A stretch of DNA of 64,000 nucleotides, taken from Acorus gramineus (Eukaryota; Streptophyta; Magnoliopsida; Acorales; Acoraceae). The stretch spans positions 1,936,845-2,000,844 of the forward strand of contig JAUJYN010000029.1 in NCBI GenBank assembly GCA_030737835.1, written 5' to 3'. The notes under the pieces are model-generated. The model did no database searches, was not told the DNA's origin, and saw nothing but the letters and a program-made list of their open reading frames with translations. Position numbers and translations under genes: made by a program. Below, one piece after another: positions 1,811 through 64,000 of the stretch (positions are counted from its first letter, which is position 1; each line of letters starts with the position of its first letter).

Positions 1811-1912
1811 ATCAGCACCCTAAGAAAACCAGACACTAGGATCAGAATACTCATACAGAAATCCTAGGACTCATCTCTACGAAAGGGAGACTATTGGCTC
1901 TGACAGGACCAG

Positions 1913-1929: not shown

Positions 1930-4900
1930 TGTCACGCCCCAGGGCGGCCAACCCAGGGACGCGGCAAGTGTATATATCATATCAGAAGCCAACACAGGAG
2001 GTCAATAATATATATCATACACAGACAACTAGAATGACACACATGCAACAAAAGGGGCTGACATGATATATACACCAAATGCGGAAGCAAAAGACTGAAT
2101 CTGTGAATAAACATTCTACAGACTCGATACTCAATCATCTGTCCTGTGAGAGCCAATATACACAAATACAACTGAACATATACAAACACGTGCCAAGCAC
2201 GGAAATCAAATACATACAGTCAAGAAGGGATGCTGATAACCTCTGGCACTCGCGGAACGTGGCGCTGCTCCGCTACTGAAGAAATCCCTCGGAAAGCTCC
2301 AACTGCTGCTCCGGCTCCAGCTCAGGCTCAGTGGCAACTGGGGAAAAACATATGCGAGGGGTGAGCCACACGCTCAGTGAACAGCACAACCCATGCATCA
2401 CAGACAATATTTACCAATATTCCATTATTTTATCCAGCCATCAATACATAACAACATAATCCAGTGGTTCGTACTTCGCCGAACCACCACACCCTCACCC
2501 TCACCCATCCATGGGTGACATAGGCTATTGGGACTGATAATCATCTATTCACAAATCCAGTAGGTCGCTCATCGCCAACCCACTACACCCTCACCCTCAC
2601 CCTTGACGGGTGACATAGGATTTTGGGACTGACTAGGCTGTTGGTCACCCTTAGTCCACCGGTAGTCTCTCCTCCACTCCGTAGGCCGCTTGGTCTACTC
2701 CCACGTTCAGCACAGTCCGAAACCAAATCAGGAGGTGCCTACTAATGGGGCCCTCCGAAGGCCCTGTCTAACGCTGGGGGTAGCCTCTACCGAATCCAAC
2801 GCAGGGAACAGAACAGCCTATCCATACGCATATGATCCACTCGGATCCGCCGACTACATATCATCACAACTCAAATGTCATGAATTCCTCTGAATTCAAC
2901 CAGGTGCATCATCAAGATGCGGGAACATGTACAAAAATCAGCAAGGCTGGAATATCATTGGGGGAAAGAAACTCGGAAGGGCGGCGTGAGTTCCCGTTAT
3001 AGGATACCCCGACAACCAAACAAGGAACACGGAGTACCCTAACCCGGGTCTCACCGCTGTCCTTGCAAGGCCCCTCCCCTATAATATCTACCAACTATGC
3101 TAATAATTATACCAATCATACAATCATTACATATAATATTATTGGGACTAGAACCTTGGGAGGGCAGCCCGAGGTCCCGATACAGGACATCCCGACAACC
3201 AAACAAGGAACACGGAGTACCCTAACACGGGTCTCAGCGTTGACCTCGCAAGGCTCCTCCCTATAATATTATCCTAAGGCATGCGATCTAACAGATACCA
3301 GCATTTAATTTAATAAATAAACTAGTAGGACGCATGCATAGGCCGGGGTTTCCTAGCATGAAAACCAGGGGACATGCTGCATGGCTCATACGCATATCCT
3401 ATGGGTGCAAGTCCCTAACATAAAAGCCTAGGGTAGCATGCATTCTACATTTTCATCATGCTCACATGCAATACATATTATTGCAGGTTAATATAATCCA
3501 CCGTGACCCAGGAGAGGTCGGTATACGCCCAAGTGCGTACAACGCCTCTCTACTGGGTTGGATTGTCCCACTCACCAGAATCGGGGTCGTCGCGCGACCG
3601 TCCGTCTAGATCTGCAAGACAGACATCAAATGGTGAGTTAAAATCCATAAATACCAAGGTACAAAATCATACATAAACCCACAATTAACACCCAACACTC
3701 GGGCAAACGTGCATACGACCCGCACGCACGCTAGCCCGAGCACTCCGACAACCACCCGCACGGCCGGCCACCACCCGCACGGCCACCCGACCGCCCGGAC
3801 GCGCCGCCGCGCCTCAGCCCGCGCACTCCGCGCACCGCCCGGGGCACCGCGCGTCCACCGCGCCCAGCCGCGGCAGCCCGCACGCGCACCGCACGCCGTG
3901 CGCTGGCCCGCGAGCACCCCGCACGCCCCCGCGCGCGGCGCCTCGCCCCCGCGCACACCTTCCTGCCCCGCCGCGCCTCGCGCTCAGCTCCTCGCCTCGC
4001 GCCTCCTCCGCGCGCGCCCCAGTCCCTGCCTCGCCACATCTGCACGAGCATCACCACTGTCCGCCTGCTAGCACCCCCGGGACCAGCTCCTCGCGCACCA
4101 GCATACCCGTGCGCTCCGCCCAGCACGTCCGCATGCCCGCACGATCAGCTCGCCCGCACTTAGCGCCCAGCACGCCCGCGCGCCTGCACGACCAGCACGC
4201 CCGCGCGCCTGCACGACCAGCACCTCGCGCACGCCTAGCACCTCGGCACCACCTCGCGCACGCCTAGCACACGGCACCACCTCGCGCACGCCTAGCACAC
4301 GGCACCCCCGAGCGCACACTGCCTGTGCTGCCTGAGGCCCCCAGCTTGAGCACGCCAGCCCTGCCAGCCCGTCCCGCGCGCCCAGCACGACTAGCACTGC
4401 CAGCCCCAAACCCGCGCACACCCCGCACATGCCGCGCGCACGCACGACCGCGAGCGCACGCGCGCATCCCCGCACGCGCCCAGCCTACGCGCTGCCTGGG
4501 CCGTTGCCGCCGCTGCCTGCTGCCCGGGACAGTGGCCCTGCCTGCCGAGCACCTCCAACCACCCCTCCCACTGCCGCCGACCACCTCCAACCACCTCCGA
4601 CCACCCTCCGACGACCCCCACTGCCACCGACCCCCCCCCCCCCCCAAACACAAAAACCCCCCCTAGAAATCATCTAGGCAAGAAAAAGAGGGAAAGGAGG
4701 CTTACCGAGGGGAGGAAGAGGCGTCCGGTGGCTCTCCACGCGCCGAAACCCTTCCCAAAAGCCTTCTCACGCCCCGATCTAGCTTGGCCTTCGAAATGGG
4801 CCAAATCAGAGGACGAAAAGGGGAGGTCGGGGAGGCTAGGATCGTCGGAACTCGGATTTGAAGACACCGGAGCGTAGATCGGGACCCGATCTACACTTCC

Positions 4901-5871: not shown

Positions 5872-5883
5872 TGGTATCAGAGC
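5872..5883 (+). other. Primer-binding site, initiator tRNA-Met type
   Basis: TGGTATCAGAGC starts five bases after the LTR terminus GTGACA. It has the same sequence and spacing in all three Tekay internal regions in this window. Confidence 0.92.
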
Positions 5884-5984
5884 CTGGTCCTGTCAGAGCC
5901 AATTGTATTCTTTCTTAGAGATGAGTCCTAGGATTTCTATATGAGTATTCTGATCCTAGTGTTTGGTTTTCTTAGGTTGCTGAT

Positions 5985-10846: not shown

Positions 10847-13840
10847 TGTTATATATGTGTCACTTTTTGCCTTCTGGTAACCATTGGGACATTCTGGCAG
10901 TTTTTCAGTTTTTTTCGTTTTTCGATCGGAACCGCTAAAATTTTGGACTGTTAGCTATCATCCTGAGTTTGAGGACTCCGATTGAAAATCTAACTGCATA
11001 TTATGTGTCCTGGTGCCATTCCAAGCCACTCACGAAAATTTCATCGAATTCCGGTAACGTTTCAGAATTTCACAGTTCCGAAGCGTATCCGGGTTTTGAC
11101 CGAGCGAGAAGTCATTGGGAGACTTGACTTGGTCAAATTTGACCTTTGACTTGGTCAAATGAATTTGGATTTTAGTGTGGTTGGGTTGACTAAGGTCAAA
11201 CCTCACCTAAGTGCACTTAAACCTCACTAATCCTAGCCTAAACCTAATTAGGGCTAATCTAAGTGTGGGTGTGAGAGTGTGTGGTGTGGTGTGGCCATAA
11301 CAAAATCCCACGACAACATAAGCCCTCCTATTCATCATCTTCTCCAAAATTTCTCTCTCTCTCCCTCTCTTTAATCCCCCCTTTTGACCTAGTTCTAGTG
11401 GTGGAAATCAAAAACCCTAAGAAGAGAAAGGATAGGTAAGAACCCGATCTACCTTCCGGTGGTCTCGGATTCGAATTCCCACATGTGTGACCCCTTCTCA
11501 TACCATCTTTTCTCCTCTTTTCAGCCCCTCTTTGGCTGAGTTGGAGATCTCGGTGGTGGCAGTCTTGGAGGCGGTGTTTTGGTGCGCGAAGAGCACCGAT
11601 CTTCGTCCCCTTCCTTTCCTCTCCTTGGGTGAGTTTCTTTTCCTTCCTTTCTTGTTTAGATGCTTGATTAGGAGGTATTTTGGGTATGTATGGCTGTTGG
11701 TGGCTGTGGGTAGCTGTTGGTGGCTGTTGGTGGCCATTGGTGGCCGTCGGGGAGGTGGTAGGGTTGTCTCGGGTAGGCTGGCAGCGCAGGCGGGCAGGCT
11801 GGCAGGCAGGGCGGGCAGAGCAGGCTGGCAGGGCACGAACGCGTGCGCGCGGGCGTGCGCACGGGTGGAGCAGGAGTGTGCGGGTGCTGCGCGCTGGGCG
11901 CCGTGCGGGGGCGTGCGCGCGGGTGGAGCAAGAGTGTGCGGGGGCTGCGCGCTGGGCGCCTTGCAGGGGCGTGCGCGCGGGGCGCTGCGCAGAGGCGCAG
12001 TGCGTGCTGTGCGCGCTGGGCCGTGTGCGGGTGCTGCGCGCAGGGGGCCGTGCGGGGGCGTGCGCACGGAGCGCTGCGCAGAGGCGCAGTGCATGCTGTG
12101 CGCGCGCGGTGAGGCAAGCGGGGTGCTGCGTTGGGGTGCAGGGCGTGCGGGTGTGCGCGCGAGTTGCTGCGCTGGGGCGCAGTGAGCGCACGATGCACCC
12201 GGGGGGCTCGTCAGAGGGTCCGGGCTTGCGGGCAGGGGCTCGGCAGTGCGTCTGGGCGCGCGGGCTGGGGCGCGGCTGTGCGCCTGGGGCGGGTGGCCGT
12301 GCGTACGGCTGCCCGGGGGTTCGGGTGAGTCGGGGTGCTCGGACTCGCGTGCGTACGGGCCGTATGTACGCTTGTCCGAGTGTTGGGTATTTTAGTGTAT
12401 TTTTTGTTATATTTGTGTATTTTACTCACCAAGTTGATTACCCTATCTTGCAGATCTTGACGGACGACCGCGCGACGACCCGGTTATTGGTAAGTGGGAC
12501 AATCCAACCCAGTAGGGAGGCGCTATATGCACTTGGGCGTATACCGTCCTCCCCTGGGGCACCATAGTTTAATATTAACTTGTTTAATATGTAATCTATG
12601 CAAGCATGATTAATATGTAGTATGCATGCTACCCTAGACCGTGTATGTTAGGGACTTGCACCCTTAGGATATGTGTAAGAGTCATGCATCCTGTCACCAT
12701 GTTCTCATGCTAGAAAGCCTCGACCTATGCATGTGTCCTACTAGTTTAATTATTAAATTAAATGCGAACTTCTGGTATTTTAGCATGCCTTAGGGAATAT
12801 TAAGGGGCCTTGCGAGGTCAGCATTGAGACCCGGACTAGGGTACTCTGTGTTCCTTGTTTGGTTTTCGGGATATCCTATGTCGGGACCTCATGGTGCCCT
12901 CCCAAGGTTTCTTTTCCCGATAATATTATAAGATATGTTTCCCCGCATCTTAGTTATGCGCCCTGGAGGAATTCTGATGAATTCATGACATTAGAGGTTA
13001 TGAGAGGTGTTGTCGACGGATCTGAGTGTATTGCATGCGTATGGATAGGTCGTTTCTGTTCCCTTCGTTGGATCCCTATAGAGACTGCCCCAGCGTTAGA
13101 AAGGCAGTCCCGTCAGAGGGATCCCATCAGTAGGTACCCCCTGATTTGGATTCGAACTGTGCTGAAGTGTGGGAGGAGGCCAAGCGGCCTACGGAGTGGA
13201 GGAGAGACTATTGGTGGACTAAGGGTGATTAACAGCCTAGTCAGTCCCAATATCCTATGTCACCTATTAAAGGGTGAGGGTGAGGGTGTAGTGGGTCGGC
13301 GATGTAGCGACCCACTGGATTGTGTAGTTCCTGCCACTTTGAGGCTTGATTAATTATTTGTGGTTAATATAAATTGTGATGCATGGGTTGTGCTATTCAC
13401 TGAGCGTGTGGCTCACCCCTCGCATAATTTTTCTCCAGTTATCACTGAGTCGGATATGAAGGAAGAGCTTCCCGAGAGACTTCATCAGTAGCGGAGCAGC
13501 GCCACGTCCCGCGAGTGTTAGAGGCCATCAGCATCCTTCCTTTTGATTGTATGTATTATATTTCCGTGCTTGGGCACCATTTGTATATTATATTTGGATG
13601 TCATTGTATATATTGGCTCTCACAGGACAGTTGATTATGTATCGAGTCTGTAATATGTTTTTGAATTACATATTCAGTCTTTTAGCTTCCGCTATTTGTG
13701 TATATATCATGTCAGCCTTGCTTTTGTCTGTGTTGTCATTTTAGCTGTTGTTTAGAGTATGTTATTGACCTCCAGTTTAAACTGCTGATATCATGTATAC
13801 ACTTGCCGCGTCCCGGGGACGGCCGCCCTGGGGCGTGACA
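10847..13840 (+). mobile_element. 3' LTR of Tekay-1, about 2.99 kb, complete
   Basis: It starts TGTTATATATGTGTCAC and ends GGGGCGTGACA. Inside are a donor-like GTGAGT at 11629, a CpG-rich tract (about 11750-12370), the 36-nt exon-like block 12454-12489 preceded by TTGCAG and followed by GTAAGT, one G-rich TGAGGGTGAGGG unit near 13270, and an acceptor-like TTTTTCTCCAG ending at 13438. If used as splice sites these define putative introns of about 825 and 949 nt within the LTR. Confidence 0.9.
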
Positions 13841-14607: not shown

Positions 14608-17600
14608 AGTAGTATTACAATACTACCTAAGGCATGCCATATTCTATACATCCATACACATTACCAAAAATACATGCCCATACTAGAGGGGCTCATGCAA
14701 CACAATCATTCATACATGAATACAATACATGTATATAAGCCTAGCATGCAAGATATCTACATATTATAGTTTAAGCATGGGCATACTACTTATCTACACA
14801 AGTAGTATAGCTAGGATGCCCCATCGATGCGCGACGCACGACTACGCGCGTTGAGCGCATCTCGAGGGGGGGGGATTGGATCAAACCACTCACCGCAACC
14901 CGGGACCTCGCGCATCCCATCCAACGAGATCTACAAGGTAAGGGCATCAAATTTGGTGAGTAACATCACAATTTAACACTTAGAAATCACTAGAATTACC
15001 AAAGACTTAGACGTGCACGCATACGGGCTCGCACGCATGCAAGCACGCGCGTACGCACGCATGCCCAAGTGCCCCAGCACCTACCCGAGCCCCTGGCCAG
15101 CCCCACGCATGTCACGCCCCAGGGCGGCCAACCCCGGGACGCGGCAAATGTATATATCATATCAAAAACCTACACAGGAGGTCAAATATATATATACTCT
15201 AAACCACAAATAAAATGACAACACAGATCAAACAGGGCTGACATAATATATACACAATATAGCGGAAGCTAAAACTGAGTCTGTAAACCAAAACATATTA
15301 CAGACTCGATACACAATCATACGTCCTGTGAGAGCCAATATACATGGAAACAACTGAACATATACCAACACGTGCCAAGCACGGAAATAAAATACATACA
15401 GCCAAGGAAAGGGATGCTGACAGCCTCTGGTACTCGCGGACGTAGCGCTGCTCCGCTACTGAAGAAATTCCTCGGAAAGCTCCAACTGCTGCTCCGGCTC
15501 TAGCTCAGGCTCAGTGACCACTGGGGAAAAACATGTGCGAGGGGTGAGCCACACGCTCAGTGAACAGCACAACCCACGCATCACAGACAATATTTACCAA
15601 TATTCCATTATTTTACCCAGCCATCAATACATAACAACATAAACCAGTGGTTCGTACTTCGCCGAACCACCACACCCTCACCCTCACCCATCCATGGGTG
15701 ACATAGGCTATTGGGACTGATAATCATCTATTCACAAATCCCGTAGGTCGCTCATCGCCAACCCACTACACCCTCACCCTCACCCATCTATGGGTGACAT
15801 AGGATTTTGGGACTGACTAGGCTGTTGGTCACCCTTGGTCCACCGATAGTCTCTCCCTCCACTCCGTAGGCCGCTTGGTCTCCACCCACAACTTCAGCAC
15901 AGTCCGAAACCAAATCAGGAGGTGCCTACTTATGTGGGTCCTCCGAAGGACGGCCTTTCTAACGCTGGGGGTAGCCTCTACCGAATCCAACGCAGGGAAC
16001 AGAACAGCCTATCCATACGCATATGATCCACTCGGATCCGCCGACTACATATCATCACAACTCAAATGTCATGAATTCCTCTGAATTCAACCAGGTGCAT
16101 CATCAAGATGCGGGAACATGTACAAAAATCAGCAAGGCTGGAATATCATTGGGGGAAAGAAACTCGAGAGGGCGGCGTGAGTTCCCGTTATAGGATACCC
16201 CGACAACCAAACAAGGAACACGGAGTACCCTAACCCGGGTCTCACCGCTGTCCTTGCAAGGCCCCTCCCCTATAATATCCACCAACTATGCTAATAATTA
16301 TACCAATTATTCAATCATTACATATAATATTATTGGGACTAGAACCTTGGGAGGGCAGCCTGAGGTCCCGATACAGGACATCCCGACAACCAAACAAGGA
16401 ACACGGAGTACCCTAACACGGGTCTCAGCGTTGACCTCGCAAGGCTCCTCCCTATAATATTATCCTAAGGCATGCGATCTAACAGATACCAGCATTTAAT
16501 TTTAATAAATAAACTAGTAGGACGCATGCATAGGCCGGGGTTTCCTAACATGAAAACCAGGGGACATGCTGCATGGCTCTTACACCTATCCTATGGGTGC
16601 AAGTCCCTAACATAAAAGCCTAGGGTAGCATGCATTCTACATTTTTCATCATGCTCACATGCAATACATATTATTACAGGTTAATATAATCCATGACGCC
16701 CCAAGAGAGGTCGGTATACGCCCAAGTGCGTATAACACCTCTCTACTGGGTTGGATTGTCCCACTCACCAGAATCGGGGTCGTCGCGCGACCGCCCGTCT
16801 AGATCTGCAAGATAGACATTCAATATGGTGAGTTAAAATCCACAAATACTACAAAATACACAAGAACTTACATAAACCCACAACTAAACTCCCAACACTC
16901 GGGCAAACGTGCATACGACCCGCACGCACGCTAGCCCGAGCACTCCGGCTACCACCCGCACGGCCACCCGCCCTCGGATGCGCCGCCGCGCCTCAGCCCG
17001 CGCGCCCCGACGCACTGCCGCACGCACGCGCACGCTCGCGCGCGCCCGCGCGCACCGCGCGTCCGGCCCAGCGCGCCCCCGCGCGCACTGCACGCACGCC
17101 CCAGCACGCGCGCGCAATGGTCCCCAGCACCGCGCACACTGGTCCCCAGCACCGCGCCCAGGCGCATGCCCAGGCGCCCTGCCCAGCACCCAGGCACAGT
17201 GCCCAGGCGCCCTGCCCGCGCGCGCGCACGCTCGCGCGCACGCCCGGGCGCGCCCGCGCACACCCGCGCGCACTCCCGCGCACACCCCCGCTCGCGCCAG
17301 CATCCGCGCGCACGCCCGCGACCACTCCGCGCGCACCCGCGCACCCGCGCGCACGCACCCGCGCGCGACTGCGCGCCCGACTGCGCCCGCCAGCGCCCAG
17401 CTCCACCCGCGCGCACGCCCGCGCGCACGTCTGCGCGCGCCCCTGCCAGCTGCTGCGCCTGCTGCCTGTGCAGCGTGTGCTGCTGCCTGTGCTACTGCCA
17501 CCAGCCACCTCAACCACCACTCCTCCGGCGACCAATGGCCTCCGACCACCTCCACAGCCCTCCGACGACCACCCACCGCCGCCAACCACCCCCCCAACCC

Positions 17601-37008: not shown

Positions 37009-40000
37009 TGTCACGCCCCAGGGCGGCCGTCCCCGAGACGTGGCAATAATGAAATATCAGCTATCAATACCTGAGGTTAATAAAGACTCCAACAACAACA
37101 CACAAGGCGACAAAGCAAGGATAATGATAACTGACTGAAAAGCGGAAGCATAATATATAAACAATGTCTGTAAACCAAAAACATTATTACATACTCGAAT
37201 ACACAATCACTGTCCTGTGAGAGCCAAGCCTAGTCCAAATAAAATACAACCTGTGCCACATGCACGATTTACAATACATAAAATGACTCTAGGACTGCTG
37301 ACAGCCTCGCACTCGCCACCCGCCGGAAGAACGCTCCACGCCCATAAGACCACACCACAGGGAAGCTCCAGCTCCACGCCCAACACTGCCCCTGAAAAGA
37401 AACAGTATGCGAGGGGTGAGCTACAAGCTCAGTGAGTGGCTGGAAACCAATCACCATTACAACAGTTCAATGCTAACACAATTTCCTTTCAAGGAAAAAC
37501 ATGGGTAGAAACCCAATGGATAACAGGGTCACGCGGCAGCGCGACCAACCTCACCCTCACCCTCACTCCCGGAGGAAGACTCTTGGGACTTTTGGGGAGA
37601 GACCATACCGTTGGTTGAAGAGACGCGGAATTACTGGTCCACACAACACTACTGAATCACCAACCTCACCCTCACCCTCACTCCCGGAGGGAGACTCTTG
37701 GGTCTCTTGGGGAGAGACCATACTGTTGGTCGACGAGACCCGGAATTACTGGTCTACACAACACTACTGGATTATCTACATCGAGATAACTGCCCAACGA
37801 TGTCTTTGAACATCGATACGCAACCGGACCCAACAACTATGGGAACGGACGAACAACGAATGGGTCACGCGGCGACGTGTCTTCACCTCATCCTCACCCT
37901 CACCCCTTAGAGGTGACATAGGACTTTTGGAAGAGACTTAGACTGCTCTACACCCTTGGTCCACCGGTAGCCCTTTCCCCGGGTAGTCACTACCTGGTAT
38001 ACTCCCACGATCAGTACGCTTCTGAACGCCTCGGTGGTACCTACGGATGGGAGCCCTCTGTCAGGACAGCTTTTCCAACGCCGGAAGTTCCTACATCGGA
38101 TCCAATGAAGGGGAGAACGATTCCACGCTCGCAATATCATTCGTTAACCCTCTCCCGGTAGCCTCTACCTGGTACACTCCCATGATCAGTACGCTCCCGA
38201 ACGCATCGGTGGTACCTACGGATGGGAGCCCTCTATCAGGACAGCTACAACCTGGCCCTCTTCAACACGGACGACATTGGGAGTAAACATTCCATGTTCG
38301 CAAAGCAAACCCAATGGAGAAACAACTACTCTCGATAATCACTTATCGAGATATCGAATACTACTGTACTCCCACACCGTTGCGTCGCTCGAACACAGGG
38401 GGGGTGTCACGCCCCAACTACCGGCTTAACAATCCGATAAGATAATGAATTCTCCTGAATTCCACACGAGTGCATCGCTCGGATGCACGGGGCGATTACA
38501 TCGCTAGCGCTCTAACTAATAAGGTACAACCCGATAGCGGGTCATACCCACGCCTATCCCAGATAGGCCTATCAGTTTTTTAACATGCGCATATAAATAT
38601 ATCCAGGAGAATTTTTATATCTAGCTATGTGCATGAACCATATGCACAATCATCTAATAATTATAGGGACACTTCCTAACATGGATTTACATTATAATAA
38701 ATCATACAACATGCATACATGGTCATTAATCACATAAGCACACAAGGCCTAACTTAAACATGCGTTGGATATCACCAACTTAAAAGAAAGGGTCAAGCGT
38801 GATCTCGCGCACTAACAGGTGCATGCCAATATTCCAAACGAACCTGAGTCAAGTAGGAAATCGCATCTACTTACTCAGTTCGTTCAGAGGGAGAGGGCGG
38901 GAGAGATCATCATCTCATGAAGCTGGTCATAGCTTTGCCCCATTAGCATGGGCGCAACAACTACATGTCACGCCCCGGGCGTCCCCGGGACGCGGCAAGT
39001 GTATATAAAATATCAGAATCTACACAGGAGGTCAATAATATATCATACACAAGCAACCAGAATGACACACAGACAACAAAAGCAGGGCTGACATGATATA
39101 TACACCAAATGCGGATAACTAAAGACTGAATCTGTAATCAAAATACACTACAGACTCCATACATAATCACATGTCCTGTGAGAGCCAATATACATACAAA
39201 GACATCCAAATACAACCAAACGCGTGCCCAAGCACGGAAAATAATACATACTGGCACAAGGGATGCTGATAGCCTCTGAAACTCGCGGGACGTGGCGCTA
39301 CTCCGCTACTGATGAAGTCCCTCGGGGAGCTCCTCCTCCAGATCCGACTCAGATGACACTGAAGAAAATATTGTGCGAGGGGTGAGCCACACGCTCAGTG
39401 AACGGCACAACCCATACATCACAGACAATATTGACCACAACCAGATAAACCTTAACATCCACATTTACCATAGCCACCAATAATCAACAATTCCTCAAAC
39501 TAGTGGGTCGCTACCGCCCACCCACTACACCCTCACCCTCACCCTCAATGGGTGACCAAGGATATTGGGACTAATCAACACAAAACCAGCGGGTCGCTTC
39601 CGCCAACCCGCTACACCCTCACCCTCACCCCTCAACAGGAGTGACATAGGATATTGGGACTGACAATCATCCATTGACAAATCCAGCGGCTCACTCATCG
39701 CCAACCCACTACACCCTCACCCTCACCCTACAACGGGTGACATAGGCTCTTGGGACTGACTAGGCTGTTGGTCACCCTTAGTCCACCGATAGTCTCTCCT
39801 CCACTCCGTAGGCCGCTTGGTCTCCCCCCACAACTTCAGCCCAGCCGAAACCAAATCAGGAGGCGCCTACTGATGTGGGTCCTCCGAAGGACGGCCTTTC
39901 TAACGCTGGGGCAGCCTCTACCGGATCCAACGAGGGGGACAGAACAGCCTATCCATCGCATATGATCCACTCGGATCCGCAGACAACACATCATAACAAC

Positions 40001-43000
40001 ACTAATGCTCTGAATTCCTCAGAACCCACCAGGGCGCATAACTACGATGCGGGGAACATGCATAAGGTTATAACAAGGGTGGAATATCATTGGGGGAAAG
40101 AAACTTGGGAGGGCAGCGTGAGTTCCCGTTATAGGACACCCCGACAACCAAACAAGGAACACGGTGTACCCTAACCCGGGTCTCACCGCTGTCCTCGCAA
40201 GGCCCCTCCCCTATAATATTCACTATAACATGCAATTTAACAAATACTAGCATTTAATTTAATAAATAAACTAGTAGGGCACATGCATCGGTCGGGCTTC
40301 CTAACATAGAACCAGGGAACATGCTGCATGGCTCATATACATATCCTAAGGGTGCAAGTCCCTAACATGCAAGGTCTAGGGTAACATGCATTCTACAATT
40401 AAATCATGCTCGCATGATATACATATTACACATGCCAATATCTATCCATGGTGCCCCAGGAGAGGTCGGTATACGCCCAAGTGCGTATAACACCTCTCTA
40501 CTGGGTTGGATTGTCCCACTCACCAGTATCTGGGTCGTCGCGCGACCGTCCACCCAGATCTGCAAGACAGACATTCAATATGGTGAGAACAAATACTTAA
40601 ATACTCCAAAAATACATCTAAAATACATTACACTCGGACAAACGTACATACGACCCGTACGCACGCGTATCCGAGCATCCCGACTCACTCCCGAGCCCAC
40701 CGGGCAACCGCACGCACGGCCACCCGCCTCGGGCGCACCGCCGAGCCCTGGCCCGCGCGCCCGGACAGCCTGCCAAGCATCTGCCCGCAAGCCCCAGACA
40801 CACTGCATGCCCGGGCGCACGCACGCGCACGCCCGTGCGCACCGCGCGTCCGGCCCTGGGTGCACCCGCACGCACCGCGCCCCCGCACACACCCCCCGCC
40901 TGCACTGCGCCCCAGCAAAGCGCCCAGCACTCCCTGCCGCACCCCCGAGTGCCCTGCGCTCCACGCGCAGCACCCGCGCGCGCCCCGCGCACACCCCGCG
41001 CACACCACCTGCCTCTACCCGAACGCACCACGCACGCACCGCCAGCTCCGCCCCCGCCCGCACACCGCGCGGACCGCCAACTCCGCCCCGCGCGCACCCC
41101 GCGCGCACCACCAGCCGCCTTGCCGCGCCCCGCGCGCACCCCGCGCGCACCCTGCACGACGCCCCGCAGCGGTGCCCAGCGCCCAGCACCCTCGGCCAGC
41201 ACCCGGTACCCGCGACCCATCGCCCAGCGCTCAGCGCCCAGCACCCGGGACCCTCACCCAGCGTCCACGCGCACGCACGCGCAACACGCGCCCAGCGCGC
41301 CTGGCAGCACGCGCCCAGCGCGCCTGCCAGCCTGCCCGCGTTGCCTGCCTGCGTGCGTCGCCGAGTGGCCCGAGCACCGCTCGCCTGCACGCCCGGGGCA
41401 CTGCCCGCCTGATACCCGAGCGCCCCTGCCCTGCTCGCCTGCGCGCCCAGCCTGCCAGCGCGCACAGCCACTACCCGCAGCCAGCCTGCACCACACGCTT
41501 CCTTCTGCACCCCCCGAGCGCAGGCCCGCGCGCGCGCCCGCGGGCACGCCCTTGCGCGCCCGGCAAACTGGTGCGCCTGCTGCCTGCCGCACGCCCGAGT
41601 GCCCTGCGCCCCATGCGCAGCACCCGCACGCGCCCCGCCCTCACGGCCATCATCCCCAGCACCGCCGCCCAGCTCCAGCCGCTCGACCAGCACGCCCAGC
41701 GCCTGCAGCACCACCCGAGGGCACGCCGCGCGCACGCCTGCGCGCACGCCCGACCACCTGGTGCCCCACGCTGCTGCGCCTGCTGCCAGCGCTCCCGGGA
41801 CAGCCACCCCACCTACCCAAGCAGCCTAGCTCCCCTACCCGAGCACCCACTCACCACCACCGGCCACCCCCGGCCTCCGACCACCACCCCAGCCCTCCGA
41901 CGGCCACCCACCGCCTCCGACCACCACCCAACCTCATTTCCACCCTCCTAACATACATCTAAGCAAGTAAAAGAGGGGGAAATAGGGCTTACCAAGGGAG
42001 GAAGGGAAGTCCGGACGCTCTCCGCGCGCCGAAACCTCTCCCAAAGGGTTCCAATGCCCCGATCTACCTCCACCACCGAGATGGCTCAAAACAGAGGAGA
42101 AGAGAGGGCGGACGGACGGGCAAAACTCGCCGGAATGGGGATTTGAAACCACCGGGGTGTAGATCGGGACCCGATCTACACTTCCTAGGTTTTGGGTTTT
42201 AAGCTTTGAGGGGTCTAGGGGGCTCAAAAGTGAGAAAAACGGATAAGGGGAGAGAGAGGGCTTGGGGAGGAAGAACATGAATAGTGCCAAGCACTTTTTA
42301 AATCCCACTTATATAGCGCGCGACTTAAAAACCCAGATACGCCCCGGAACTGCGAAATTTCGGAAACGTTACCGGAATTCAATGAAATTTTCGTGAGAGG
42401 TCTAAAATGGCACCAGGACACCAAATATGCAGTTAGATTTCCAATCGGAGTCCTCTAGCTCAGGACGATAGCTAACAGTCCAAAATTTAGCGGTTCCGAT
42501 CGAAAACCCTAAAAATTTTTAAAAACTGCTAGAACGCTCCAACGGTTACCAGCAGGCTAAAAGTGACACAAGTATAACACCACGCCCTCGAGTCTTATCG
42601 CAAGGGAATATTAGGCAGGTGCCCGTTATTAACCCAAACTTATTCATGCTGGATATTCCAATTAATATGGTGAGAGTATTATTACAATACTACCTAAGGC
42701 ATGCCATATTCTATACATCCATACACATTACCAAAAATACATGCCCATACTAGAGGGGCTCATGCAACACAATCATTCATACATGAATACAATACATGTA
42801 TATAAGTCTAGCATGCAAGATATCTACATATTATAGCTGAAGCATGGCCATACTACTTATCTACACAAGTAGTATAGCTAGGGGGCCCCATCGATGCGCG
42901 AGGCGCGTCTATGCGCGTCAAGCGCATCCCGAGAGGGGGGGGGGATTGGATCAAACCACTCACTGACACCCGGATCGCCGCGCGTCCAGTCTACGAGATC

Positions 43001-44286
43001 TGCAAAACACAACCAATGATCCATAATTAAATTATGGAACCTCCTATAACACATATAAGCTTACTTCGTGAAAACCCTAACCCCTAATACTTCCATATTA
43101 TCACCCAAGACACATGCAACCAACTCTTTGACACTCAACCAAGCAAAACTGCTAAACCTGCTGTAACCAGCCCTACTAATTGGTCTTCACAGCACCCAAT
43201 ACACTTCCACAAATTATGAAATAAATCATGCACATTCTATGATATGCTGGGATCAAGACATTAAACCTAATTTTGCCTCTACAAGCCCGAAACAAATCAT
43301 TTCCCGAAGCAGGTCAATTCCTACGCGAATCTGGACAGGTCATGCAAAATTGGTTCTAACTTACACCACAGATATCATAATGACCCCGAATTTCATATAT
43401 AACAACTACACACATAGATGATCATATCACATGAAGACATAATCATACAAATATGCCTCTAAATACTAGATTCACTGAGATATTTAAAAGACAGATAGCT
43501 GTCTTACCGAAACAGGGGGAGGGAAATGGGGAGATCGGGGTTCTCGACACACCCACGACCACCTCAACCACCACCACCACACTACCTCATCAGCATCTCC
43601 TCAAGCCCTTCATGGCTGAAAATAGGGGTGCAAAAAAAAGACGGGGTATGAGAGGGAGCTAAAGAGAGGAGAATCAACAACAACAACAACATGAATGCAC
43701 ACACACACACACACCTTAATCATCTTCTTTGCACCCCCTTTTGTGCTTCTTCTTCTCCTTCACTTGCTGATTTTGTTTTTCTCTTTAAAACTCACTAAAG
43801 AAAGCCTAAAAGGGAGAGAAAAGAGAGGGACGTTGGAGGGAGAGGGAGAGAGAGAGTTCTCACTCTCAAAGGGTGTTTAATGCCCAAAAAGTGGGTGGTT
43901 GGGGGGTGGGTTTGACCTTGTCAACCAAACCAAGGAAACAAACCAAACCCATTGACTTGACAAAGTCAACTTTGATTGGTCAAAGTCTCCATTTGACTGG
44001 TCAAAGTCTCCATTTGACAATCCAGTAACGGCCAAACCCGGATGCGATTCGGAACTGCATATTTTTTTAAAACGTTACCGGAATTCGATGAAATTTTTAT
44101 GGGTAGTTCAAAACGGTACGAGGACCCATAGTATGCAGTCAGATTTCCAATCAGAGTACTCTAACTCCCGCAGATGGCTAAAAGTCAAAATTTTAGCGGC
44201 TCCGATCAAAAAATTAAAAAACCCCTCAATGACCCAGAAGTGACCAAGGCTTAACCGAAATGGCTCTAAATGACAGAGGCATAACA
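37009..44286 (-). mobile_element. Solo LTR, family B (B3), with 5-bp target duplication, itself interrupted
   Basis: It runs from TGTCACGCCCCAGGGCGGCC at 37009 to GACAGAGGCATAACA at 44286. Exact GTTAC copies flank it (37004-37008 and 44287-44291). Without the nested Tekay LTR (38966-42579) it is about 3.66 kb. The exon-like block is at 42999-42964 (36 nt) with GCAG before and GTGAGT after. G-rich TGAGGGTGAGGG-type units (minus strand) lie near 37555, 37670 and 37890. Confidence 0.88.
38966..42579 (-). mobile_element. Solo Tekay LTR nested in B3, about 3.6 kb
   Basis: It runs from TGTCACGCCCC at 38966 to ACAAGTATAACA at 42579, with no internal region. Flanks CTACA and CCACG agree at three of five positions, so either the duplication has drifted or the ends recombined. 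It is the longest Tekay LTR here because its CpG-rich tract (about 40650-41830) is expanded. The exon-like block is at 40559-40524; three G-rich units lie near 39530, 39620 and 39715. Confidence 0.85.
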
Positions 44287-45367: not shown

Positions 45368-46883
45368 AATAATAGATAGCCTATCAGAAAGTGAGGAAGC
45401 GTAAAATTACATAAATCTGTCATCCAAAGTAATATTACAGATCCAATTAACACAATTACTGTCCCGTGAGAGCCAAGTCTAGTTAAAATCAACTAAAAAT
45501 AACGACATGTGCGTCAAGCACAAATACCATAACATACAGGTAAGAGGAATGCTGATGGCCTCACGCTCGCAGAACAAAAAGACCGAACGCCGCAACAACT
45601 ATTGGAATCCCACCTCACAGAGCTCCTCCTTCAATATCAACTCAGCCCCTGGTGAAGGAACAATACACGAGAGGTGAGCTATAAGCTCAGTGAATGGTAA
45701 GAAGCCACACATTGTATCTATATCACATCAATAGTACAATAATAGTTTCAACCAAGACATGGAATAACCTATAATAATAGAATATCACGCAATGACGTGC
45801 CCTCACTATGCCTTCACTCTTACCCATAGGGATGTCAAGAGACTTTTGGAAGAAATCAATACGCTAACGCTCTACATCATCCGGTAGCCCTCTTCCAGGT
45901 AGCCCTCGTCCTGGCGGCCTTCCAACATCATGGCGGTGCCACACAGGAAAGCTTCGACGCTTGACAGCTTCAACACACGATGATGTGTAAAAGAAATACT
46001 CTACAATCACAATATAACCCTTATAAATCCTCCACCATCAGTTAGCCATTACCGATACGTTATCGAATTCTCGTAAATTCCCATAAAGTTGCATCCCTCA
46101 AATGCGGGAAGATTAACTATATTCACAACTGAATAATGTCCTAGCATGACCCTAAAGGCGGGTCCTACACACACCTATAATTGATAAGCAAAGTTTAGTA
46201 TCCAAATATTTAGTTTTAACATTCCATAATATATCAAAGCTAAGTATGGAACTATACAAACTTAATTATAAATAGCATACCACATATTTAACTAATCATG
46301 GAGCAAATTCAATATACGAATCTCCTATGGCATACCATATTTAATAATATTAAATACATAAGATAAAATATCATGCTAGCATTAGATGTATAAAAATATG
46401 TTTATTTATGCATATATTATAGTGGACAAACAAGTAATGGGTGCGATATAAATTGTCTATGCAAAATACAAATTATAAATATATTTAGTATGCGTTATCT
46501 AACATGGTAAGTTATAATCCTAATAATACGTCCATTATATGAATACTACATAACTACGGCGCTCTTAGAATACACGGAGCACGGCTACGTGTATTACGCG
46601 CTTCCTAAGTGGGTGGATCGAACCACTCATCGTTACCCCGAATCGTCGCGAGTTCTGTCAATGAAAGCTGCAAAACACAATCAATGATTCTCAATTAAAA
46701 TATGAAGTCTCCTGACACACATACAAGCCAACTTCATGAAGACACTAACTCTTGATGGTTCACACATCATGCATAATAGCTCTTTGACACACAATCAAGT
46801 AAAACCGGTACATCTACTACAACCAGCACTAAACTTTAATCTACACAACACCAAATACACATCTAATAATTCTGAAATAAATC

Positions 46884-49772
46884 TGTTATATATGTGTCAC
46901 TTTTAGCCTTCTGGTCACCATTGGGACATTCTAGCAGTTTTTCGGTTTTTTTTCGTTTTTCGATCGGAACCGCTAAAATTTAGACTTTTAGCTATCACCC
47001 TGAGTTTGAGGGCTCCGATTGAAAATCTAACTACATATTATGTGTCCTGGTGCCATTCCAAGCCACTCACGAAAATTTCATCGAATTCCGGTAACGTTTC
47101 AGAATTTCGCAATTCTGAAGCGTATCCTGGTTTTGACCGAGCGAGAAGTCATTGGGAGACTTGACTTGGTCAAATGTGGGCCCATGACTTGGTCAACCCC
47201 CTTTGTTTTCTAGTGTGGATGGGTTGACCCAAGTCAAAGTGCCCTTAAACCTCACTTAAACCCCCCCTAATCCTAGCTTAGCCTAATCTTTTTTTCACTA
47301 ATTAGGGGTGTGAGTATGTGTGGAGTGGGTGTGGGTATAAAGAAATCCCACGACAACATGATCCCTATTCATCATCTTCTCCACTCAATCCCTCTCTCTT
47401 CCCTCCCCTTAAAACCCCCATATGATCTAGTAGGAAGCCTTGAAATCAAAAACCCTAAGAAGAGAAAGGTTAGGTTTTGTCCCGATCTATCTTCCGGTGG
47501 TCTCGGATTCGAGTTCCCACATGTGTGACCCCTTCTCATGCCCTCTTTTCTCCTCTGATTTCAGCCATTTTTAGGGCTGAGGGAGATCTCGGTGGTGGTG
47601 GTCTTGGAGGTGGTGTTTCGGCGCGCGAAGAGCAACCGATCTTCCCTTCCTTCCTTTCCTTCCTTGGGTGAGGTTTCTTTCCTTCCTTTTCTTGTTTAGA
47701 TGCATGTTAGGAGGGTGTTTTTGGGTATGTATGGCTGTTGGTGGCCGTTGGTGGCCATTGGTGGCCGTCGGGGAGGTGTAGGGTTGGCTCGGGTAGGCTG
47801 GCAGCGCAGGCAGGCGGGCTGGCAGGCAGGGCTGGTAGAGCAGGCTGGCGGGGTACGCGCGCGTGCGTGCGCGCGGGTGGAGCAGGAGTGTGCGGGTGCT
47901 GCGCGTTGGGCGCCTTGCTGGAGCGTGCGCGCGGGGCGCTGCGCAGAGGCGCAGTACGTGCCGTGCGCGCAGGGCCGAGTGCGGGTGCTGCGTGTAGGGC
48001 GCCGTGCGGGGGCGAGCGCGCGGAGCACTGTGCAGAGGCGCAATGCCTGCTGTGCGCGCGCGGTGAGGCGAGCGGGTGGTGCGCGCGGGGTGCACGCGGG
48101 GCGCTGCGCTGGGGCGCAGGGCGTGCGGGGTGCACGCGGGGTTGCTGCGCTGGGGCGCAGTGAGCGCGCGGTGCACCCGGGGGGATTGGCAGCGTGTCCG
48201 GGCATGCGGGCAGGGGCTTGGCAGTGCGTCTAGGCACGCGGGCTGGGGCGCGGCAGCGCGCCTGGGTGCTCGGGCTGGGGCACGGCAGTGCGCCCGGGGC
48301 ACGGGAGTGCGCGGATGCGTGCGCACCCGTGCGTGTGCGTGCGGGTGGCCGTGCGCATGGCTGCCCGGCGGTGCGGGAGTGTGTCGGGGCACTCGGACTC
48401 GCGTGCGTACGGGCCCGTATGCATGCTTATCCGAGTGTAGGGTATTTCTAGCGTATTTCTTGTGTATTTGTGTATTTTACTCACCATTTTGGTTTCCCAT
48501 GTCTTGCAGATCTTGACGAGCGGTCACACGACGACCCGGGTATTGGTGAGTGGGACAATCCAACCCAGTTGGGAGGCGTTCGATGCACGTAGGTGTGCAT
48601 TGCCCTCCCCTGGGGAACCATAATCGCATATTAGATAGTATTAATTGTAAACTATGCATGCATGATTATTATGTAGTATCCATGCCACCCTAGGCCTTGC
48701 ATGTTAGGGATATGCACCCTTATGATATGTGTAAAGGCCCAAGCATCCTGATACCATGTTTTCATGCTAGGGAAGCGTCGACCTACGCATGCGTCCCATT
48801 TAGTTTAATTTATTTAAATCAAATATGAGTTTTGTAATTAGCATGCCTTAGAGAATATTATAACCTTGTGGTTATAATATATGCTTCCCCGCATCTTAGT
48901 TATGCGCCCTGGAGGAATTCTGAAGAATTCATGACATTTGTAGAGTTGAGATCGGTGTCGGCGGATCCAAGTGGATCGTATCCATGTGGGTAGGCTGTTT
49001 CTCTTCCCTTCGTTGGATCCGTGTAGGGACTCCTCAGCGTTAGACAGGCCGTCCTGACAGAGGGCTCCCAGCAGTAGGCACCTCCTGATTTTGTTTCGGA
49101 CCGTGCTGAATTGTGGGAGTAGACCAGGCGAGCTACGGTGTGGAGGAGAGGCTATCGGTGGACCAAGGGTGATTAACAGCCTAGTCAGTCCCAAAAGACC
49201 ATGTCACCAGTTTGAGGGTGAGGGTGTAGTGGGTTGGCGATGAGCGACCCACTGGTTTGTGTAGTTGTTGCCACTTAGAGGCTATGAATGATTTGAGGTT
49301 AATATGAATTGTGATGCATGGGTTGTGCTATTCACTGAGCGTATGGCTCACCCCTCGCATATATTTTTCTCGAGTGATATCTAAGTCGGATCCGCAGGAG
49401 GAGCTCCCCGAGGCACGTCAGCAGTAGCGGAGCAGCGTCACCTTTCTGCTTGCGAGAGGCCATTCAGCATCCCCCTTTGATTGTATGTATTGTATTCCGT
49501 GCTTGGGCACATGTTTGTATTATATTTGGATGTCGTTGTATATATTGGCTCTCACAGGACAGTTGATTATGTATCGAGTCTGTAATATGTCTTTGAATTA
49601 CAGATTCAGTCTTTTAGCTTCCGCTATTTGTGTATATATCATGTCGGCCTCATTGTTGTCTGTGTTGTTATTTTTGATGTTATTTAGGGTATGTTATTGA
49701 CCTCCTGTATAGACTTCTGATATCATATATACCCTTGCCGCGTCCCGGGGACGGCCGCCCTGGGGAGTGACA
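46884..49772 (+). mobile_element. 5' LTR of Tekay-2, about 2.89 kb
   Basis: It starts TGTTATATATGTGTCAC and ends GGGGAGTGACA. It has a donor-like GTGAGG at 47668, a CpG-rich tract (about 47790-48420), the 36-nt block 48510-48545 between TTGCAG and GTGAGT, a G-rich unit near 49214, and an acceptor-like TTTTTCTCGAG ending at 49374. Confidence 0.9.
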
Positions 49773-49777
49773 AAAGT

Positions 49778-49789
49778 TGGTATCAGAGC
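49778..49789 (+). other. Primer-binding site, initiator tRNA-Met type
   Basis: TGGTATCAGAGC, five bases after the 5' LTR end. Confidence 0.92.
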
Positions 49790-49891
49790 CTGGTCCTGTC
49801 AGAGCCAATGGTCTTCTTTTCGTAGAGATGAGTCCTAGGATTTCTATATGAGTATTCTGATCCTAGTGTCTGGTTTTCTTAGGTTGCTGAT

Positions 49892-62370: not shown

Positions 62371-64000
62371 TGTTATATATGTGTCACTTTTATCCTTCTG
62401 GTCACCATTGGAGCATTCTGGCAGTTTTTTAACTTTTTCTTTTTTCGATCGGAATCGCTAAAATTTTAGACTTTTAGCTATCATCCTGAGCTTGAGAACT
62501 CCGATTGAAAATCTAACTGCATATTATGTGTCCTGGTGCCATTTCAAGCCACTCAAGAAAATTTCATCGAATTCCGGTAACGTTCAGAATTTCACAGTTT
62601 CGAATCGTATCCGGGTTTTGACCAAGCGAAAAGTCATTGGGAGACTTGACTTGGTCAATGTTGACCCTTGACTTGGTCAATTGGGTTTGTTTTCTAGTGT
62701 GGTTGGGTTGACTAAGGTCAAAGCTCACTTAAACCTAACTTAACCTAGCTAAGCCTAATTAGTGCTAAGTGTAAGTGGTGAGTGTGTGAGGTGTGTGTGT
62801 GTGGTGACTTAATGTCCACGCCCAAGTATAGTAAATGCTATTCATCATCTTCTCCATTTCAAGCTCTCTCTCTCTCTCTCTCCCTCTCTTTAAAACCCCC
62901 ATATGATCTAGCTAGAGTGGTTGATCAAGAAAGCCATAGAAGGAGAAAAGGAAGGTGAGGACCCGATCTATCTTCCTATGGTCTTGGATCTTCATTTCCT
63001 TTTGTTTTTCCTCCTCTTATGGACCCTCTTCTCCTCTGTTTTCAGCCCCTCTTAGGCTGAGAAGAGGGCTTGGTGGTGGTGGTCTTGGTGGTGGCGAATC
63101 GGTGCGCGAAGAGCACTCGAATTCCTCCCCTTCCCTTCCTCTCTTTGGGTGAGCTTTCTTCCTTCCTTTTTCTTGTGTAGATGCTTGTTTAGGGTTGCAT
63201 ATGGGTATGCATGGCATGCATGGTGGTTAGGGGGTTGGAGGGGGGCTGTTGGGGGTGTGGGAGTGGCTCGGGCGCGCGTGTGGGGTCATCCGCGCGCGCG
63301 TGCGCGCGAGCCTGGGTGCGCAGGTAAGCGCAGGCAGGCGCAGGCCCACAGTCAGGCGCGCGTTGGCGGGCGTGCGCGCGTGCGCGCGGGCGTGCGAGCG
63401 GGTGCTGCGCAGGGGGCGCAGTGCGCGCGGGGGTACTGCACTGGGGCGCAGTGCGTGCGGGTGTGCACGCGAAGTGCTGCGCTGGGGCGCAGTGCGCGCG
63501 GGTGCACCCGGGGCTGGACGCGCGGTGAGCGTGGGCGCGCGCGGCAGCGTGTCTGGGCGTGTGGGCAGGGGCGCGGCAGAGCGCCTGGGTGCTTGGGCTG
63601 GGGCGCGGTAGTGCGCCCGGGGAGCGGGGGTGCCCGCACGCGTGCGCACCCGTGCGTGTGCGTGCGGGTGGCCGTGCGCATGGCTGCCCGGCGGTGCGGG
63701 AGTGTGTCGGGGCACTCGGACTCGCGTGCGTACGGGCCCGTATGCATGCTTGTCCGAGTGTTGGGTATTTCTATCCTATTTCTTGTGTATTTGTGTATTT
63801 TACTCACCATTTTGATTTCCCATGTCTTGCAGATCTTGACGAGCGGTCACGCGACGAGCCGGGTATTGGTGAGTGGGACAATCCAACCCAGTAGGGAGGC
63901 GTTCGATGCACGTAGGCGTGCATTGCCCTCCCCTGGGGAACCATAATTGCATATTAGATAGTATTAAGTATAACTATGCATGCATGATTATTATGTAGTA
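62371..64000 (+). mobile_element. Tekay LTR running off the right edge
   Basis: It starts TGTTATATATGTGTCAC and follows the other Tekay LTRs to the window end: donor-like GTGAGC at 63149, CpG-rich tract about 63240-63740, 36-nt block 63833-63868 between TTGCAG and GTGAGT. Whether it is solo or the 5' LTR of a full element cannot be seen. Confidence 0.88.

What the first reader, a model, noticed from the sequence alone, without database searches (positions are those of the whole stretch)
12454..12489. A conserved 36-nt exon-like block inside every Tekay LTR: a putative multi-intron spliced leader
In all eight Tekay LTR copies that include this region, a block of exactly 36 nt begins ATCT after a CAG and ends before GTRAGT: 3611-3576, 16804-16769 and 40559-40524 (minus); 12454-12489, 48510-48545, 56753-56788, 59167-59202 and 63833-63868 (plus). 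Family B keeps it at 42999-42964 (36 nt) and 14930-14894 (37 nt). Family C keeps the block but has lost the GT. A donor-like GTRAG lies about 0.5-1.4 kb upstream and a pyrimidine-rich acceptor about 0.9 kb downstream, near the LTR end. The surrounding sequence varies in length and content, so the fixed block with splice-site flanks looks selected. Introns inside an LTR leader, with a microexon, would be unusual for this lineage.
Basis: partly seen in the sequence, partly recalled or inferred. Interest (0 to 1): 0.82.

Follow-up and report, generated by a model that had tools for sequence, protein, structure and literature searches.

The report
Introns inside plant retrotransposon LTR leaders
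The long repeats at the ends of a family of plant jumping genes seem to carry a small non-coding exon between two introns, which would let the plant's splicing machinery make a short messenger RNA while the unspliced RNA is kept for copying; the sequence evidence is fair but no RNA was available to prove splicing.

Summary
In detail: 8 of 8 A-type LTRs have CTTGCAG|36 nt|GTRAGT as stated; B1, B2 and C keep the block, C without the GT. Alone it is weak: looser units arise 1-2.7 times per surrogate LTR and the block is averagely conserved. The case for introns rests on more: (1) the upstream donor is GTRAG in 11 of 11 copies, with 0 of 29 and 1 of 25 flanking positions invariant; (2) LTRs B1 and B2 match in exon 1 (72%), exon 2 (68%) and intron 2 (94%) but not in intron 1 (49%, shuffled 48%), the matches ending within 6 nt of the splice sites; (3) the second acceptor keeps AG in 9 of 9 copies behind a variable pyrimidine tract; (4) a TATA-like box precedes exon 1 in 5 of 7 copies. 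An acceptor-like site 9 nt before the gag ATG could remove the primer site and nearly all upstream ATGs. Best reading: non-coding leader introns. Against: GC-rich intron 1 in family A, no RNA, species unknown. It is not a trans-spliced leader on present evidence.

The parts
10847..13840 (+). LTR copy A1 (TGTTAT...GTGACA), 3' LTR of element 1
   Evidence: self-BLAST and alignment
11329..11628 (+). A1 predicted exon 1 (start-like CTATTCATC near 11328, no clear TATA in this copy; CT-rich); end set by donor GTGAGT
11436..11524 (+). A1 optional small intron 0 inside exon 1 (TAG|GTAAGA ... TTTTCAG|CC, 89 nt); best-scoring donor and acceptor of this LTR by approximate matrices
11629..12453 (+). A1 predicted intron 1 (68% GC, 825 nt)
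12454..12489 (+). A1 36-nt exon 2
12490..13438 (+). A1 predicted intron 2 (949 nt)
13439..13840 (+). A1 exon 3 / rest of LTR
48510..48545 (+). A2 exon 2; exon 1 ends 47667, exon 3 starts 49375
59167..59202 (+). A3 exon 2; exon 1 ends 58509, exon 3 starts 60032
56753..56788 (+). A4 exon 2; exon 1 ends 55846, exon 3 starts 57841
63833..63868 (+). A5 exon 2; exon 1 ends 63148; LTR cut by the window end
16769..16804 (-). A6 exon 2; exon 1 ends 17657, exon 3 starts 15520
40524..40559 (-). A7 exon 2; exon 1 ends 41993, exon 3 starts 39358
3576..3611 (-). A8 exon 2; exon 1 ends 4706, exon 3 starts 2337
43000..43507 (-). B1 intron 1: 508 nt, 37% GC, GTAAGA...TTGCAG, no detectable homology to intron 1 of B2
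42964..42999 (-). B1 exon 2 (36 nt)
37330..37391 (-). B1 exon 3 start after CTCACCCCTCGCATACTGTTTCTTTTCAG (end arbitrary)
14894..14930 (-). B2 exon 2 (37 nt); B2 LTR 19351-18244 is continued here after the nested A6 LTR; B2 donor 1 at 18589
46631..46667 (-). C exon 2 (37 nt), donor GT changed to AT; C exon 3 starts 45648
49778..49790 (+). primer binding site TGGTATCAGAGCC of element 2 (initiator-tRNA-Met type, recalled); also 5872-5884 (+) and 1924-1912 (-)
49841..49882 (+). acceptor-like stretch TTCTGAT...GGTTTTCTTAG ending 9 nt before the gag ATG at 49892 (element 2)
5934..5975 (+). same acceptor-like stretch in element 1, gag ATG at 5985
1820..1861 (-). same acceptor-like stretch in the A8 element, gag ATG at 1810

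Best explanation
These are LTRs of a Tekay-like Ty3/gypsy chromovirus whose transcribed leader contains real, host-type (GT-AG) introns lying inside the LTR. Transcription starts about 0.3-0.5 kb into the LTR, behind a TATA box. A CT-rich non-coding exon 1 ends at a GTRAG donor; a fast-changing intron 1 follows; then the 36-nt non-coding exon 2; then intron 2; then an acceptor near the LTR end (exon 3). Some copies have an extra intron of 83-91 nt within exon 1. Splicing removes most of a 2.5-3.2 kb leader that holds 52-65 upstream ATGs (two elements counted). Inferred step: exon 2 (or a later exon) is also joined to the acceptor-like site 9 nt before the gag ATG. That mRNA would have almost no upstream ATGs and would lack the primer binding site, so it could be translated but not reverse transcribed; unspliced RNA would be the template. 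This would explain why LTR introns, which a spliced template would lose in one round, are still in the copies seen here. Shown: the sequence features, their cross-family conservation, and the intron-bounded loss of homology. Inferred: that splicing happens, where transcription starts, which junctions are used, and the two RNA pools.
For: Donor 1 is GTRAG in 11 of 11 copies (A 8, B 3), A/G both occurring at +3, while 0 of 29 exon-side and 1 of 25 intron-side flanking positions are invariant (ungapped anchoring on the motif; B3 reaches only +12). Control: in that 55-column stretch 58 of 7680 patterns of the same degeneracy are shared by all 8 A copies, and the only ones with three or more fixed purines are GTRAG and its overlap GGTRA; GTRAG is absent from the shared set in the 6 other stretches tested. 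B1 and B2 agree in exon 1 (72%), exon 2 (68%) and intron 2 (94%) but not in intron 1 (49% vs 48% shuffled); the BLAST matches of B1 to B2 and B3 end within 6 nt of the splice sites. The acceptor of exon 2 keeps AG in 11 of 11 (A 8, B1, B2, C) and donor 2 keeps GT in 10 of 11. The acceptor of exon 3 keeps AG in 9 of 9 (A 7, B1, C), with no AG at -25 to -3 in 9 of 9 and 12-13 pyrimidines of 17 despite differing sequence. Donor 2 ranks 1-5 among 132-320 GTs and acceptor 2 ranks 2-5 among 85-206 AGs per LTR with approximate, recalled plant matrices. A TATA-like box lies 29-32 nt before CT(A/G)TTCAT in 5 of the 7 copies that hold the region (patterns chosen after seeing the alignment). Upstream ATGs: 52 and 65 in the unspliced leaders of two elements, 3 and 0 after joining exon 1, exon 2 and the gag exon.
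Against: No RNA data. Intron 1 of family A is 66-73% GC and 17-24% U, against the U-rich habit of plant introns quoted in PMC3735527 (passages). The 36-nt block is not unusually conserved in family A, and the sequence after donor 2 is as conserved as the GT. Donor 1 and acceptor 3 score modestly (ranks 4-24 and 6-41); other sites in the LTRs score higher, for example CAG|GTAAGC within intron 1 of A3 and A5; A2 and A3 have CGAG at acceptor 3. In the donor-1 control, two of the six other stretches share 22-23 purine-containing patterns, so shared short motifs are not rare in this LTR. With lenient scoring, B1 matches to A copies run on into intron 1: about 20-65 nt past the donor (A2, A3, A5) and about 60-90 nt before exon 2 (A6, A7), at 60-66%, so 'unrelated' holds for B1 against B2, less cleanly against A. 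Family C lost the GT. The gag-proximal acceptor ranks only 11 of 178 and 10 of 204 in the two elements ranked, and its three copies are too alike to show selection. No convincing donor links exon 3 to gag; an exon 3 that reads on to gag leaves 14 and 10 upstream ATGs. ATG shortage in exon 1 is borderline (10 vs 16.7 expected, p about 0.05).
Confidence: 0.6

Rival explanations
1. A conserved non-spliced DNA or RNA element (regulatory, structural or packaging signal) covers CTTGCAG to CCAACCC; its splice-like ends are incidental, and the other sites are chance matches.
For: The 24 nt from the donor on are as conserved as the GT, GAGTGG....ATCCA is kept in A, B1, B2 and C (one A copy, A4, reads ACCCA) although C lost the GT, and loose microexon-like units arise 1.0-2.7 times per surrogate LTR. 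Other LTR islands are conserved too.
Against: Does not explain donor 1 at 11 of 11 in an unconserved stretch, the intron-1 replacement bounded by splice sites, or the variable-sequence pyrimidine tract at acceptor 3.
Confidence: 0.22
2. Splice sites act without productive splicing: U1/U2 binding at the leader shields the 5' LTR from premature polyadenylation or aids export.
For: Good donors downstream of the presumed start; the poly(A) signal must also be in the LTR (logic of LTR replication). HIV-1 uses its major donor this way (recalled).
Against: Would not need conserved acceptors; no poly(A) site was mapped here.
Confidence: 0.1
3. Exons 2 and 3 are coding: a short C-terminal peptide of an LTR-encoded protein.
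For: One joined frame is open in 7 of 7 A copies and ends at a TAG/TAA at the same place (28 or 32 codons; the length difference is 12 nt); by eye, C exon 3 also ends ...CAATAG. A 2026 paper says that active sunflower Tekay members encode an additional ORF (PMC12844716, passage).
Against: In exon 1 an in-frame ATG exists in 1 of 8 copies (A7); changes by codon position 22/17/29 and pN/pS 0.64 over related copies, the former on a tree typed by hand, are weak; B2 and C have 37 nt. The best donor near the pol stop (AAG|GTGCGA) is in phase 0 in both elements; a CAG|GTGAAG about 1.1 kb before the stop is nominally in phase 1 in both, but using it would remove much of integrase, and the reading frames there are broken.
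Confidence: 0.06

Closest known systems
BARE1 (barley, Ty1/copia): distinct RNA pools, spliced gag RNA (PMC3735527, passages seen)
   Same: Splicing and RNA class separate translated from replicated RNA; [quoted passage not shown]
   Different: BARE removes a 104-nt intron near the end of gag; in the passages seen, no intron in the LTR and no leader exon
Ogre and CRR (Ty3/gypsy) spliced transcripts (as described in PMC3735527 and, for Ogre, PMC6317226; passages)
   Same: Ty3/gypsy plant elements with spliced transcripts; CRR is a chromovirus (clade recalled)
   Different: Splicing between ORFs (Ogre) or removing RT (CRR), not in the LTR leader
EVADE short-gag splicing and sunflower Tyran/Varan isoforms (PMC12786077, PMC7730604, passages)
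   Same: Alternative splicing makes a gag mRNA beside the genomic RNA
   Different: EVADE splicing removes the protease domain; whether Tyran/Varan introns touch the leader was not seen; Tekay members were absent from the expressed set of that sunflower study
Retroviral leader splicing: HTLV/BLV donors in R; HIV-1 small non-coding leader exons (recalled)
   Same: Donor inside the transcribed LTR and small non-coding exon joined into mRNAs; spliced mRNAs are not templates
   Different: Here, two or three whole introns and an internal exon lie inside the LTR of a plant Ty3/gypsy element

Membership tests
Ty3/gypsy element | gag, aspartic protease, RT, RNase H, integrase in this order | tested here: met
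   Element 1: Retrotrans_gag, RVP_2, RVT_1, RT_RNaseH in order. Element 2: RVP_2, RVT_1, RNase H, Integrase_H2C2 in order, and rve at E 7.5e-5 below its cut-off
Chromovirus | chromodomain at the pol C-terminus | tested here: inconclusive
   PF00385 at E 1.1e-4, 22.4 bits, below the 25.1 cut-off, at residues 82-126 of the last 129 aa of element 1 pol; element 2 end not scanned because its frame holds a stop
Tekay clade | groups with Tekay rather than Reina, Galadriel or CRM in RT/INT trees | not testable with these tools
Spliceosomal intron | GT-AG ends with extended donor and pyrimidine-rich acceptor, kept across diverged copies | tested here: met
   donor 1 11/11, acceptor 2 11/11, donor 2 10/11, acceptor 3 9/9
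Spliceosomal intron | plant-typical U-rich, AU-rich body | tested here: inconclusive
   B1 intron 1 is 37% GC and 38% U; A intron 1 is 66-73% GC and 17-24% U; A intron 2 is 46-50% GC
Spliceosomal intron | removed from RNA | not testable with these tools
   no transcript data; no genome held
Trans-spliced leader (SL RNA) | short exon donated in trans from a separate RNA | not tested
   nothing seen in the sequence suggests it; the block has donor and acceptor signals in cis on both sides

The most novel reading that the evidence does not exclude
A plant Ty3/gypsy retrotransposon that splits its RNA into two pools by leader splicing: spliced, PBS-less, nearly uATG-free mRNA for translation and unspliced RNA for reverse transcription, with introns kept inside the LTR only because spliced RNA cannot be primed, and with intron bodies that can be exchanged between families.
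Probability: 0.3. Interest if true: 0.78.

Novelty: new variant of a known kind. Interest (0 to 1): 0.6.

Why it matters
A December 2025 review says plant LTR retrotransposons generally lack introns, with Ogre and EVADE as notable exceptions (PMC12786077, passages). Introns within the transcribed part of the LTR should be lost at the first reverse transcription of a spliced RNA, so their survival makes a clear prediction about which RNA is copied. If true it gives a simple sequence-level mechanism for separating translation from replication, and LTR promoters with splice donors would be ready-made first exons for neighbouring host genes.

Tried and rejected
Pol C-terminus spliced into the 3' LTR: the best donor near the pol stop is in phase 0, not the phase the exon 2-3 frame needs; a nominal phase-1 donor 1.1 kb upstream would delete much of integrase. 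Exon 3 to gag donor: top GTs differ between the two elements scanned and are mostly weak. Relatives: viral contigs with two patterns, 0 hits; genome contigs gave one bacterial contig, L001, a 25-nt match without further similarity, taken as chance. Solved structures with the pol end: 3 weak matches, best E 0.16. tRNA scan with bacterial settings: none. Copies with cleanly missing introns: none noticed in the self-BLAST, but only about 11 LTRs are available and no dedicated search was run. G-quadruplex motifs as the reason for the GC-rich intron: 0-3 per copy in intron 1, not pursued. Papers: ten searches (one search was an input error). I saw capped listings with starts of abstracts, and passages of seven papers (PMC12844716, PMC3059260, PMC7730604, PMC12786077, PMC3735527, PMC7010299, PMC6317226); none described introns inside a plant LTR leader. 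Subscription papers and preprints are not in that library.

Full report
What is there. The window looks like plant DNA filled with nested LTR elements. Self-BLAST and alignment give eight A-type LTRs of about 3 kb (A1 10847-13840, A2 46884-49772, A3 54745-55243 plus 58243-60420, A4 55249-58240, A5 62371-window end on the plus strand; A6 18243-15110, A7 42579-38966, A8 5290-1930 on the minus strand), three B-type (B1 from 44286, B2 from 19351, B3 from 14607, all minus) and one C-type (from 46883, minus, left end cut by A2). For A3 only the part 58243-60422 was aligned.

The block. In 8 of 8 A copies CTTGCAG precedes and GTRAGT follows a stretch of exactly 36 nt. B1 has 36 nt, B2 37 nt, C 37 nt with ATGAGT in place of GTGAGT. 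A search for GTGAGTGGGACAATCCAACCCAGT with up to 3 mismatches gives 8 sites in the window, at most one mismatch each, all at this place.

How strong is the block by itself? Not very. In surrogate sequences with the same dinucleotide make-up, loose units (YAG, 20-60 nt, GTRAGT) appear 1.0-2.7 times per LTR, YAG-36-GTRAGT 0.03-0.09 times, the strict TTGCAG-36-GTRAGT 0-0.002 times, but the eight copies are relatives. By parsimony on a FastTree tree the 36-nt block has 0.69 changes per column against a mean of 0.84 for 36-column windows (49th percentile); CTTGCAG has none (best 7% of 7-mers), GTRAGT 0.17 per column (best 21% of 6-mers).

What does support introns. First, donor 1. In the fastest-changing region of the LTR (exon 1, 1.30 changes per column) all 11 copies that hold it have G|GTRAG, both purines at +3 and all four bases at +6; of the flanking positions 0 of 29 upstream and 1 of 25 downstream are invariant (B3 reaches only +12). 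The copies were anchored on the motif without gaps, which favours the motif. As a control, 7680 five-letter patterns with one two-fold degenerate letter were tested in the same 55 columns: 58 are shared by all eight A copies, and the only ones with three or more fixed purines are GTRAG and its overlap GGTRA. In six other stretches 6-77 patterns are shared, GTRAG never; two of the six do share 22-23 purine-containing patterns, so shared short motifs are not rare.

Second, intron exchange. B1 and B2 are 72% identical over the last 100 nt of exon 1, 68% in exon 2 and 94% over the first ~285 nt of intron 2, but intron 1 is 49% identical, the same as after shuffling (48%). B1 intron 1 is 37% GC; the B2 halves are 68% and 54% GC. 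BLAST matches stop at 43514 (B2) or 43503 (B3) against the donor at 43508/43507, and resume at 43005, six bases before exon 2. B1 intron 1 resembles that of C (64% over 228 nt, shuffled about 53%). So exons persist while the intron body between them is replaced. Against A copies the picture is less clean: lenient BLAST runs about 20-65 nt past the donor (A2, A3, A5) and about 60-90 nt before exon 2 (A6, A7) at 60-66% identity. The step from 68% to 94% also hints at a recombination near donor 2.

Third, acceptor 3. AG is kept in 9 of 9 copies (A 7, B1, C), with CTCACC upstream, 12-13 pyrimidines of 17 in a tract whose sequence differs, and no AG at -25 to -3. A2 and A3 have CGAG there.

Fourth, position. 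In 5 of the 7 copies that hold the region (A2, A4, A6, A7, A8; not A1 and A5) a TATA-like box (TATTTAAA in A8) lies 29-32 nt before a CT(A/G)TTCAT motif (patterns chosen after seeing the alignment), so exon 1 would be a CT-rich 5' UTR exon of roughly 300 nt. A1, A5 and B2 also have a complete GT-AG pair within exon 1 that would make a small extra intron of 83-91 nt; in A2, A3, B1 and B3 it is weaker or broken.

Fifth, the gag end. In element 1, element 2 and the A8 element the leader runs TGACA-AAAGT-TGGTATCAGAGCC (primer site) and ends ATTCTGATCCTAGTGTYTGGTTTTCTTAG|GKTGCTGAT-ATG (gag). This acceptor-like site ranks 11 of 178 and 10 of 204 AGs in the two elements ranked, and its three copies are nearly identical, so it is suggestive only. 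Unspliced leaders of two elements hold 52 and 65 ATGs; exon 1 + exon 2 + gag exon hold 3 and 0; with exon 3 read through to gag, 14 and 10.

Coding? Exons 2+3 share an open frame with a stop at the same place in 7 of 7 A copies, and by eye C ends alike, but exon 1 offers an in-frame ATG in only 1 of 8 copies (A7), codon-position changes are 22/17/29, pN/pS 0.64, and B2 and C break the length. I treat it as non-coding and keep the coding reading as a rival.

Mechanism. Established retrotransposon biology says that the LTR is rebuilt from both RNA ends, so an intron in the transcribed part of the LTR is lost when a spliced RNA is copied. Its presence in the copies seen here means that unspliced RNA is copied. 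A spliced mRNA that skips from the leader exons to the gag acceptor lacks the primer site and cannot be copied. This is inference; splicing itself is inferred too.

Against. No RNA, no genome, no relatives found in the collections searched apart from a chance bacterial match. Intron 1 of family A is GC-rich (66-73%) and U-poor (17-24%), while plant introns are U-rich according to PMC3735527 (passages). Donor 1 and acceptor 3 are middling by score, and stronger-looking sites exist elsewhere, such as CAG|GTAAGC inside intron 1 of A3 and A5. C lost donor 2. ATG shortage in exon 1 is borderline.

Prior work. Passages seen: BARE splices a 104-nt intron near the end of gag; Ogre splices between ORFs, CRR removes RT, the env RNA of the Bagy2 group results from splicing (PMC3735527; Ogre also PMC6317226); EVADE and sunflower Tyran/Varan make short gag isoforms (PMC12786077, PMC7730604). 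The 2011 CRM paper PMC3059260 has 0 occurrences of 'intron', 'spliced' or 'splicing'. In the capped listings of my ten paper searches and the passages of seven papers I found no introns inside a plant LTR leader, within an open-licence library only. Novelty: new variant of a known kind.

Noticed in passing
46884-49772 and 54745-60420: The two LTRs A2 and A3 flank one internal region, but the tree places A3 (right part only) with A5, not with A2, and their intron-1 starts differ, suggesting mosaic LTRs.
   Followed up: partly
17845-17825 (A6), 42179-42159 (A7), 4894-4874 (A8), minus strand; 55649 and 55668 (A4): A palindrome GTAGATCGGG-N-CCCGATCTAC (longer spacer in A4) stands near where A1, A3 and A5 have the donor of the small intron 0.
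   Followed up: no
11629-12453 and counterparts: Intron 1 of family A is a GC-rich, repeat-rich hypervariable stretch (0.66-1.43 kb) with 0-3 G-quadruplex-type motifs per copy.
   Followed up: partly
44287/44286 and 14608/14607 (minus strand): LTR-to-LTR abutments: a C-type LTR end directly followed by the B1 LTR start, and B2 interrupted by the B3 LTR start.
   Followed up: no
44621-44862: Tandem repeats with a 60-nt period (91% alike) within the C-type region.
   Followed up: no
26667-30609: Another retroelement with a 613-aa gag ORF, protease and RT fragments; it shows no match to the other elements in the self-BLAST at E 1e-20.
   Followed up: no
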